DNA of 64,000 nt from a bacterium (GTDB lineage Bacteria; Actinomycetota; Acidimicrobiia; Acidimicrobiales; CATQHL01): assembly GCA_028824415.1 (NCBI GenBank), contig JAPPDX010000104.1, positions 18,058 through 82,057 on the forward strand, written 5' to 3'. The stretch's first letter is position 1. Each line of letters opens with the position of its first letter. Positions 13,979-16,900 of this stretch are shown here, in pieces. The notes under the pieces were generated by a model that saw nothing but the letters and a program-made list of their open reading frames with translations, was not told the origin of the DNA and ran no database searches. A program made the position numbers and the translations under genes.

Positions 13979-16900
13979 TCTCTCTCTCTCTCTCTCTCTC
14001 TCTCTCTGCAGCGCTGCGAGGTCGTCGTGGCTCGCGAACTCGGCAGCTGCGGCTGCGAGTTCGGGGGAGCGCCACACTGCGGCGGTCCAGTCGCCCGCGG
14101 TGACCCTCTCGGCGGGCCAATAGGAGATTTCGCCCCACCCGTCGGGCAGTGTTCCCGTCTCGGTAGTCCGCAGATGCGAGTGCAGCGTCTCGGTGTCGCG
14201 CTCGTCTGCTGGGAACCGGTCCAACGCGATGACCCGCGTCGGGGGGTGCGGGCCGTCATAGCGGCGGAACACGAAGACGCTCTCGTTTATTTCTGTGTTC
14301 TGGGACAGGTTTCCGTCACGCGTGGCGAAGTTCGTCAAGACTGTGTGGAGGTGCAGACGCGACGCCAGCCAGCGGCGTTCCGCGAGTCCGGAGGCGTTGG
14401 TAGCGAGGATCGTGGGGGAGATCATGGCCAGGACTGCGCCAGTGGCATCTGTGAGGCATCTTTCGCCCAGTGTCGCGAACACCGGGTGTATGGAGTTCTT
14501 GTCGAGGACCCCATCCACCGACGGGTCTGCTTCGCAGAGCATCCGCTGGAGGCAGTCAGATCGGTCGCGGAGATTGGCCCTAGTGATGGGTTTGAACTTC
14601 TCGCCCATCTTGGTGCGGTTCGTGAAGGGCGGGTTCATGACCACGATCCGACAGTCGAGCGCCGCATCCACGGCGTCTTCGAGTTCGGCGTCGTTGGATA
14701 GGTCGTCGTCGAGCGCAAGCCGTTGCGAGCCGATCTCGCCGCCGATGTCGCTGTCGAAGGGTAACTCGCCGGGACGTTGCAGGAACTTGCGCTGGCCGAG
14801 CAGTTCCAAGCTGCCTGCCGAGCCGCGACGACCCGAGGTCGGGTCGGCCTCGCCGTAGGGCATCAGGTAGAGGCCCATCTTGCGGTAGCGGATGTCCTGG
14901 TTGCCCTGGGTGAGCTGCGCGGCCGCAAGCTGGAGAGACACAGGATTGATGTCCATGCCCTTGACCACGCTCTCGACGGCGACGCGCTGCAGCTCCGCGA
15001 GCCGCTGCTCGGAAGCGCCGGCAGCTCGGGCGCGTCGCTTCATGTCGGCCAGCAGCGCCGCTAGAAGCGTCCCCGACCCGCAGGCCAGATCAATGGCCTT
15101 GTGATCCTTCCACACGCTCTCGTCGGCCCAGTCGGGTTCGTCGCTGTCGCCTCGGCACGCGTCGAGCGCGAGTCTCGCTGTGAGCGTCGCCGCGGCGGGC
15201 CTGGTGAAGTAGGCGCCATCGGATGCCTGGTTGCCCATCACTCTGTTGAACAACGGCCCGGCGTGGTCTGCGCCCAGGTCGGCGTAGGTCTCCGCGAGCC
15301 GCTCCGCTTCGGCGGCGATATGGTGCAGCGCCCGCTCCAGGCCCACGGTGCGTCCGGTGTCCTCAATGGCGTGGACTGCCTGCACTGCCGGGCGTATCAC
15401 GGGGTCGAAGTCATGGCTGCGAATGGTCTGCCACGCTCGATCGATCTCACGGATCGGGTTGGTGCTGGCCTTGATGGTGTCCATGCTGGGCACCCCAGCG
15501 AGCCATCCGCCCGCTGCGATCCGCTGGTGCAGCATCGCAGCGTTCATCATCAGCAGCGCGGCGATTGTGCATCCGTCGGCTTGCTGCTCGCGTTTGTCGG
15601 CGGCGAGCCGATCCAACTCGTAGTGCTCGTTCAGTGTGCCGGCGAGCGAGTCAGAGCGCAGGTGCCGCGCCGCCTCGCGGACGCTGTCCTCCAACAGATT
15701 CGCGTCCCGCTCAGTTCGATGGCGGGCTAGCCCTGATTTGGACAGCAGGTTCGCGCAGATGGCGTTGCCGCCATCTGCCATGCCGGAGAGGCGCAGCAAC
15801 TGGGCTGCGTGATGCTCCTGACGGTCCTGCTTGGTGCGGCGCTTTCTGCGCTCGCTGCGGGTCGGAACCCGCTGCCCTTCGCCGTTGTTGATCATCTTGC
15901 GGGCGAGTTTCTTCGTCTTGTCGATGTTTACCGGGCCGGGCGTACCCTCATCGGCCGGCTTGTCGCGGGCCACTCCCGCGGTGCGTATCTCGACGCTGGG
16001 CTGGCTGGCTAGGCCGACGATCGGCTTTCCGGTCACCACCGCTGCGATCGCGCCGTCAGAGAACAGCGATCCCTCCCGGTCGCCCTCTGTATCTTCGCTT
16101 GCGACTGTGACCGCATCCAGCGCTGCCTGTGTGAACGGATGGAACTCTGGATCCGAGAGGCTCTTGCGGCCCGTCGCCACGTCCTCTACGGCGTTCGCAG
16201 CGTCGCCGGGCTTGCCGACATGGAGCCTGTGTGAGAGCCGACCCGTCTCGCCGCCAGCGACGGACACGACGGTGACGACTTTCGTGTCCGGTGATGGGGA
16301 GGGCGGCAGGCACCAGATCATCTGTTCGGCCAGGTTGTCTTCGATGCGACTGTCGTGTGCTCGCAGCGCCCTCAGGGTCTGCCCGAGTTCCTGCCAGCCG
16401 TCCTCGGGGCCAGAGATCTGCAGCCATCGCTCGGCGTCCTGGTCGGGCGGGATCAGCACTGGGCAGACGATGTAGCCAGTGGCTTTGCCGGGGGTTGCGC
16501 GCATGGCGCGCCCGACCGCCTGGATTACATCGATGGGGCTCTTGCGAGGTGCCAGGAACGCGACCGCCGACAGGTTCGGGCTGTCGGTGCCCTCTCCGAA
16601 GATGCCAACATTGCTCACGGCGTGCGGAGCGCTGGGCGTGGCCTGCGCCAGATGCACCTTGGCCTCGTCGCGCTGGGAGACGCTGCTGGACGCGTCGAGA
16701 TGCTCCATCGTGAAGGGAACCGGGCTGCCCGCACTGTTGTCGGCCATCCACCGGGCGACCCACTCGGTCACCTGCACTGTCTGGAGCGCCGCCGCCATCG
16801 CCTTCGACTTCTCGACGGAGTTTAGGAATGCGATACACGACTCGACGACCGGCGGCTGCTCCCCAGACTCTTCCGCCTCAGCACCTGTGGCTCCGCCAAG

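What the first reader, a model, noticed from the sequence alone, without database searches (positions are those of the whole stretch)
13979..14006. Phase-variable Type ISP restriction-modification enzyme switched by a (GA)14 tract
Directly seen: 14 perfect GA units in the sense strand of a large nuclease-helicase-methyltransferase gene. With 14 units the protein gains RERERERER and stops at 13823, before the target-recognition domain; 15 units stop at 13897; 13 or 16 units open one frame to 13149 with the complete specificity region (about 1770 codons). Known: slipped-strand changes in repeats switch Type I, IIG and III restriction-modification genes in pathogens. Inference: this single-chain enzyme is turned on and off, and its methylome with it, by loss or gain of GA units. 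I am not aware of a dinucleotide switch described for a Type ISP enzyme in an actinobacterium.
Basis: partly seen in the sequence, partly recalled or inferred. Interest (0 to 1): 0.93.

Follow-up and report, generated by a model that had tools for sequence, protein, structure and literature searches.

The report
GA-repeat switch picks enzyme's ending
In a bacterium that is probably a marine-sponge symbiont, a run of 14 GA repeats lies inside the gene for a large enzyme predicted to cut and mark DNA; related bacteria carry other repeat numbers at the same spot, and the repeat length is predicted to switch the enzyme between one full form and two shortened forms.

Summary
Confirmed and extended. 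The tract at 13979-14006 is a perfect (GA)14 in the sense strand of a 1549-codon Mrr nuclease / SF2 helicase / adenine methyltransferase gene of Type ISP (LlaGI, LlaBIII) architecture. It lies at the methyltransferase/target-recognition-domain (TRD) junction; the TRD is in another frame here. No other (GA)8 run was found in the 3.19-Mb assembly. Relatives carry 4 to at least 37 GA units, (AC)10 or G14 there. Of 15 readable loci (window included), 5 enter the TRD frame and 10 stop early, in two different frames. Two other genomes, identical over 841 nt around the tract, differ by 5 versus 9 GA units and are in different phases. New here: between tract and TRD lie two extra ~74-nt copies of the TRD entry segment, each in its own frame and closed by a stop, so all three phases end in related peptides. 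Copy 2 is under purifying selection in its 'off' frame (pN/pS 0.32 versus 1.46 and 1.81). This suggests a three-position selector rather than plain on/off. Switching within a population, methylation, and any function of the short forms are untested. Eight full-text searches found no repeat-switched Type ISP enzyme.

The parts
13979..14006 (-). (GA)14 simple-sequence repeat at the methyltransferase/TRD junction
   Evidence: only such run found in the assembly
13823..18472 (-). Type ISP-like gene as assembled: Mrr nuclease (res. 49-156), ResIII helicase (191-431), Helicase_C (573-659), adenine methyltransferase with DLACGSGT and NPPF motifs; ends in frame A after copy 2
   Evidence: methyltransferase motifs read from the sequence, their meaning recalled
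13897..13968 (-). copy 1 of the TRD entry segment (VHKTSPTLSAQYRRT...), frame B, closed by TGA at 13897-13899
13823..13900 (-). copy 2 (VMVHATLQTLYTDYRKT...), frame A, closed by TAG at 13823-13825; its ATG overlaps the TGA of copy 1
13776..13820 (-). copy 3 = start of the TRD (VHATGQAMRDDYSKQ), frame C
   Evidence: folds as the TRD start in relative L031
13149..13826 (-). target-recognition domain, open frame C, intact (225 aa from LAVHATGQ)
   Evidence: pN/pS 0.17-0.19 for the window's TRD against three relatives
13797..13799 (-). ATG inside copy 3, 23 nt after the frame-A stop; candidate internal start for a free TRD (hypothesis)
14241..14246 (-). C6 run in a methyltransferase loop; in several relatives this spot is a longer poly-C tract

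Best explanation
The (GA)14 tract lies at the methyltransferase/TRD junction of a Type ISP-like restriction-modification gene, and slippage in it is predicted to switch the gene among three reading frames that would give one full enzyme and two TRD-less enzymes. Shown by sequence: the tract, the three frames, the three related peptide endings, the intact TRD in frame C, and relatives in all three phases. Inferred: slipped-strand mispairing during replication changes the number of units; in frame C the chain reads across an unstructured linker into the TRD and the enzyme can recognise, methylate and cut DNA; in frames A and B the chain ends after copy 2 or copy 1, so sequence-specific methylation and cutting stop together. 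Because recognition serves both activities in one chain, loss of the TRD should be safe for the cell. As assembled this allele is in frame A. The frame-A ending is conserved as protein in relatives, so the truncated form probably has a use of its own, which is unknown.
For: Tract and frames; no second such run in the assembly. Domains and Type ISP match. The C-terminal half of relative L031, whose gene is in the TRD frame, is predicted as methyltransferase + disordered stretch (res. 598-640, the tract region) + folded TRD (62) and aligns with LlaGI and LlaBIII along most of its length. Same-position tracts in 19 loci (window included): GA 4 to at least 37, AC 10, G 14; 15 could be read: 5 enter the TRD frame, 6 end after copy 2, 4 after copy 1. 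L103 and L108 are identical over 841 nt outside the tract but have 5 and 9 GA units and are in different phases. Frame C is stop-free from tract to TRD in 15 of 15 loci given. Copy spacing is 2 mod 3 in 13 of 14 measured loci (copy 1-2) and 16 of 17 (copy 2-3), L108 left out as a repeat of L103, although lengths range from 62 to 131 nt. Copy 2 own-frame pN/pS 0.32 versus 1.46 and 1.81 in the other frames; copy 3 0.28 versus 1.74 and 0.96. TRD pN/pS 0.17-0.36 in 7 of 7 pairs tried; in 6 of them both genes are out of the TRD frame, in 1 one gene is. Of 120 listed proteins, 6 end in copy 2 and 4 in copy 1.
Against: No reads, strains or methylome: switching in this organism is not shown. L103 and L108 come from two species-level draft genomes, so they do not show switching within a clone. 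Phases were read from the frame next to the junction; L128 and L002 have a further frame break upstream, and L114 meets a stop inside the TRD. Copy 1 shows only weak own-frame constraint (0.57 versus 0.80 and 1.04, p 0.085). L125 and L080 break the spacing rule, L126 has an indel in copy 1 and L127 has lost copy 1. The predicted frame-A ending is disordered, which gives no hint of a function. Tract enrichment in this gene over its flanks is not significant (5 inside, 3 outside, p 0.06). 39 of the 40 named-genome relatives with the junction have no dinucleotide tract there, so this is a feature of one branch.
Confidence: 0.87

Rival explanations
1. A decaying gene: the enzyme lost its TRD by a frameshift in a repeat and is a pseudogene.
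For: The gene is truncated as assembled; so are 10 of the 15 readable loci, window included.
Against: TRD under purifying selection between genes now out of the TRD frame (pN/pS 0.17-0.36); frame C open through the insert in 15 of 15 loci; 5 of 15 loci enter the TRD frame; the rest of the gene is one open frame here.
Confidence: 0.05
2. Assembly or sequencing error in the repeat; the gene is simply intact in frame C.
For: Draft assembly of 138 contigs; two relatives' contigs begin inside long GA tracts (L094, L125).
Against: A 28-nt tract is well within one read (general knowledge). Other genomes show the same tract with other lengths, and out-of-frame versions are common. An error here would not explain the three-copy insert or the conserved frame-A ending.
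Confidence: 0.06
3. Split enzyme: in the truncated phases a free TRD is made from an internal start in copy 3 and joins the truncated chain, whose copy-1 or copy-2 ending stands in for the missing first segment of the TRD. The tract then toggles fused against split rather than on against off.
For: All 19 tract loci have a start codon at position 8 of copy 3 (17 ATG, 2 TTG); of 54 loci without the junction tract given to the same script, 14 rows matched the motif and none has ATG. The ATG lies 23 nt after the frame-A stop. Copy 2 is selected in frame A.
Against: The start-codon pattern is confounded by common descent; 6 of those 14 rows have TTG, itself a start codon, and some rows are the same genome. 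No consistent ribosome-binding site was seen. Predicted frame-A ending disordered.
Confidence: 0.12
4. Programmed ribosomal frameshifting on the repeat, giving a fixed mix of long and short proteins without DNA change.
For: Repeats are kept in position while lengths differ.
Against: GA runs are not a known slippery sequence (recalled). Lengths from 4 to at least 37 units and three repeat types argue against a tuned signal.
Confidence: 0.04

Closest known systems
LlaGI and LlaBIII (Type ISP restriction-modification enzymes)
   Same: Single chain with Mrr-type nuclease, SF2 helicase, adenine methyltransferase and TRD; helicase matched by sequence, C-terminal half of relative L031 by predicted fold
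   Different: No repeat tract or triplicated TRD entry segment is known to me in them (recalled, not searched); they are lactococcal plasmid enzymes (recalled)
pglX of the Streptomyces coelicolor Pgl system
   Same: Phage-defence methyltransferase gene of an actinobacterium switched by tract length (passages of PMC4365076, which cites Sumby and Smith 2003)
   Different: Homopolymer G tract; methyltransferase without fused nuclease-helicase (recalled); no frame-matched alternative endings in the passages seen
H. pylori Type IIG JHP1272 / HP1353-HP1354
   Same: Homopolymer tracts; forms made in different phases differ in specificity (passages of PMC3936762)
   Different: Type IIG without helicase (recalled); the shorter active form still recognises a site
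N. gonorrhoeae NgoAV HsdS
   Same: Poly-G length change gives a truncated but functional specificity protein (passages of PMC6789123)
   Different: Type I, separate specificity subunit
H. pylori HP0667-HP0669 Type ISP cluster
   Same: Type ISP gene broken by frameshifts; the methyltransferase-TRD part is active alone (section 28 of PMC3936762)
   Different: Its frameshifts are stated not to be due to sequence repeats

Membership tests
Type ISP restriction-modification enzyme | Mrr/PD-(D/E)XK-type nuclease at the N-terminus | tested here: met
   PF13156 Mrr_cat_2, res. 49-156, 9e-9
Type ISP restriction-modification enzyme | SF2 helicase related to LlaGI/LlaBIII | tested here: met
   LlaBIII 9.4e-48 (res. 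333-713), LlaGI 3.7e-47 (352-713); family profile 8.8e-75 to LlaBIII
Type ISP restriction-modification enzyme | Adenine methyltransferase followed by TRD, as in LlaGI/LlaBIII | tested here: met
Type ISP restriction-modification enzyme | All domains in one polypeptide | tested here: inconclusive
   Met in relatives (L031, 1771 codons without a stop; P0010, 1739 aa); in this assembly the TRD is in another frame
Type ISP restriction-modification enzyme | ATP-driven translocation, cleavage and methylation | not testable with these tools
   needs the enzyme
Phase-variable (contingency) gene | Simple-sequence repeat in the coding region whose length sets the frame | tested here: met
Phase-variable (contingency) gene | Length differences between otherwise identical sequences | tested here: met
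   L103 versus L108, 5 and 9 units within 841 otherwise identical nt; in other genomes, not in this strain
Phase-variable (contingency) gene | Reading frame beyond the tract kept intact by selection | tested here: met
Phase-variable (contingency) gene | Reversible switching within one population | not testable with these tools
   no reads or cultures
BREX PglX/BrxX | Methyltransferase without a fused nuclease or helicase (feature recalled) | tested here: not met
   Nuclease and helicase are fused here; similarity to BrxX is in the methyltransferase-TRD fold of L031

The most novel reading that the evidence does not exclude
The repeat is a three-position selector. Its length modulo 3 chooses among three purpose-built endings of one restriction enzyme, each carrying its own frame-matched copy of the TRD entry segment; the two TRD-less forms are working states kept by selection, perhaps accepting a separately translated TRD in trans, so that one tract sets fused, split or recognition-free enzyme.
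Probability: 0.4. Interest if true: 0.92.

Novelty: new variant of a known kind. Interest (0 to 1): 0.8.

Why it matters
It would place Type ISP enzymes among phase-variable restriction systems, in uncultured symbionts whose kind is reported to be enriched in restriction-modification genes (Aplysina sponge study PMC5649159, passages). It also shows a design not met in the passages seen here: tandem copies of a domain entry segment in three different frames behind one repeat, with an 'off' ending kept by purifying selection. That makes an old question testable: does the out-of-phase product of a contingency gene do something? Tract counts in existing sponge metagenome reads could measure switching without culture.

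Tried and rejected
Decay was considered and set aside because the TRD and frame C are conserved. A folded cap made by copy 2 was tested by prediction and not supported: residues 593-642 of the frame-A product have pLDDT under 50. A profile search of solved structures reached only the nuclease-helicase half; the C-terminal half needed the fold comparison. A 27-base junction pattern in viral contigs: no match. Same gene in different phases between proteins and loci: 26 of the 120 proteins were compared with 20 loci at 93% identity or more; the pairs found (P0010-L031, P0020-L126 and L125, P0021-L103, and the window with itself) show no difference of phase where it can be read; P0017 and L128 are only 83% alike. 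The neighbouring DUF262 gene as a partner: matched only the window's own locus among the fetched loci, whose flanks are short, so no linkage is claimed. Tract enrichment against flanks: p 0.06, not claimed. Dropped rows: L094 and L125 (contig starts inside the tract; anchor match spurious) and the 99.5% twins L080/L081 (indels; one reads the TRD frame, the other ends after copy 1) were left out of the phase count. Copy 1-2 spacing was not measured in L080, L081, L126, L127, nor copy 2-3 spacing in L081. The selection test left out L108 (as L103), L126 (near copy of L125), L081 for copies 2 and 3, L080 and L127 for copy 1. Copies were located by motifs in their own frame, which could favour conserved ones; for copy 2 only L081 was lost that way, and copy 1 of L094 was found by hand. 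The permutation test treats sequences as independent, so its p values are optimistic.

Full report
OBSERVATION. The - strand carries 14 perfect GA units at 13979-14006 inside an ORF that runs 18472 to 13823. A 16-base GA pattern occurs nowhere else in the 3.19-Mb, 138-contig assembly.

RELATIVES. One search gave 1596 proteins at E <= 0.001 out of 7997 scored (120 listed). The nearest (P0002-P0015, 82-90% identity over the searched part) either share the repeat site or carry a different TRD without a tract. The 47 named loci are metagenome-assembled genomes; that several bin names come from sponges, and that Candidatus Poriferisodalis and Poriferisocius are sponge bacteria, is recalled, so the sponge habitat is an inference. 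Of 40 named loci with the junction, 39 have no dinucleotide tract there (one has G7); L031 has (GA)15. The TRD query matched 16 of 395 genomes of the class, 14 of 51 and 5 of 34 in two families, 6 of 9 in the own family and 24 of 397 in the order; these sets overlap.

TRACT VARIATION. In 19 loci with the copies (window included) the tract is (GA)4 to at least (GA)37, (AC)10 in L101 or G14 in L102. In the 15 that could be read from the frame next to the junction, 5 enter the TRD frame (L031, L102, L103, L114, L126; L114 then meets a stop inside the TRD), 6 end after copy 2 (window, L002, L082, L084, L108, L127) and 4 after copy 1 (L079, L083, L101, L128). L002 and L128 have another frame break further upstream, so their whole-gene state is uncertain; for L128 the TRD frame is in fact open for 1783 codons. 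The split 5/6/4 is near what a free-running frame switch would leave. L103 and L108, from two genomes, are identical for 141 nt before and 700 nt after the tract and have 5 and 9 GA units, and they are in different phases.

THREE COPIES, THREE FRAMES. Between tract and TRD lie two extra copies of the segment that opens the TRD: VHKTSPTLSAQYRRT in frame B, VHATLQTLYTDYRKT in frame A and VHATGQAMRDDYSKQ in frame C, each 74 nt from the next. The first two are closed by stops. Distances are 62, 65, 68, 71 or 74 nt (copy 1-2) and 71, 74 or 131 nt (copy 2-3), all 2 modulo 3, in 13 of 14 and 16 of 17 measured loci (L108 left out); the exceptions are L125 (66) and L080 (75). Frame C is stop-free from tract to copy 3 in 15 of 15 loci given. 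Over 15, 16 and 16 sequences, pN/pS in the copy's own frame and the two others is 0.57, 0.80, 1.04 for copy 1; 0.32, 1.46, 1.81 for copy 2; 0.28, 1.74, 0.96 for copy 3; third-position excess p is 0.085, 0.0003 and 0.00085. The permutation treats sequences as independent, so these p values are optimistic. Copy 2 is thus selected as protein in a frame that does not reach the TRD. Copy 1 is suggestive only. Among the 120 listed proteins 6 end in copy 2 and 4 in copy 1; the latter four carry glycine runs before the copy, as a poly-G tract would give (DNA not seen).

OTHER TRACTS IN THE FAMILY. Poly-C of 8-19 occurs at a methyltransferase loop in several relatives, with L104/L073 and L110 out of frame and L105 in frame; in L002 the C19 run is next to an assembly gap. 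L043 has (GA)16 in the helicase part, in frame, and L056 (GA)12 between nuclease and helicase, out of frame. Against flanking DNA of the 47 named loci the excess of tracts in the gene is not significant (5 inside, 3 outside, p 0.06).

HOW IT PROBABLY WORKS. Slippage changes the unit number and so the frame. Frame C gives the whole enzyme with a longer linker; frames A and B give nuclease-helicase-methyltransferase without TRD. Recognition is needed for both activities in such enzymes (recalled for LlaGI and LlaBIII), so both should stop together. Why the frame-A ending is kept is open; its predicted structure is disordered. A split-enzyme model, in which the TRD is translated from the ATG 23 nt after the frame-A stop, fits the start codon at that position in 19 of 19 tract loci and the absence of ATG in the 14 matching rows among 54 loci without the tract, but common descent explains that equally well.

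LITERATURE. Eight full-text searches: Type ISP with phase variation, pglX (31), sponge symbionts, LlaGI (35), Type IIG repeats (36), dinucleotide repeats and TRD (59), actinobacteria and tandem repeats (63). None of the papers whose passages I opened describes a repeat-switched Type ISP enzyme; other listed papers were seen as listings only, and the library holds open-licence PMC papers only. Nearest precedents are pglX, JHP1272 and NgoAV (passages). The one frameshifted Type ISP cluster seen, HP0667-HP0669, is said not to owe it to repeats (section 28).

VERDICT. Observation confirmed, interpretation supported, and extended to a probable three-position switch. New variant of a known kind.

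Noticed in passing
window 2895-22954: Defence-island-like neighbourhood: NYN-domain gene 2895-3563, a weak (below cut-off) NgoFVII-type PLD match 4436-5119, AIPR gene 5155-6669, DrmD-like helicase 6928-10347 (other DISARM genes not sought), UvrD/HelD-like helicase 10017-12506, GmrSD_N (DUF262) gene 18758-20680, HTH gene 21220-21552 and phage-type integrase 21758-22954.
   Followed up: partly
L002, L105, L104/L073, L110, L081, L101, L084: A second repeat site, poly-C of 9-19, at a methyltransferase loop of the same gene family; some of these copies are out of frame.
   Followed up: partly
L043:2220-2251 and L056:5386-5409: (GA)16 and (GA)12 at two other places of Type ISP relatives, in a Rhodothermales genome and a Candidatus Poriferisocius genome; the second is out of frame.
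   Followed up: partly
L071:3901-3927 and 7834-7846; L073:6280-6290: G27 and G13 tracts upstream of a Type ISP relative, and a C11 run just after a possible start codon of another; possible start-proximal or promoter switches.
   Followed up: no
L102: Two separate G14 tracts flank a partly duplicated copy 1 at the junction, so the repeat type has changed from GA to G and been duplicated.
   Followed up: no
P0004, P0009, P0011-P0015 versus P0001-P0003: Close relatives (82-90% identical in the searched part) carry a different TRD starting at the same junction and no tract, which suggests TRD exchange at this point.
   Followed up: no
window 28701-28807, 58708-58787, 61283-61337: In-window tandem repeats with 27-, 30- and 21-nt units, all multiples of three.
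   Followed up: no
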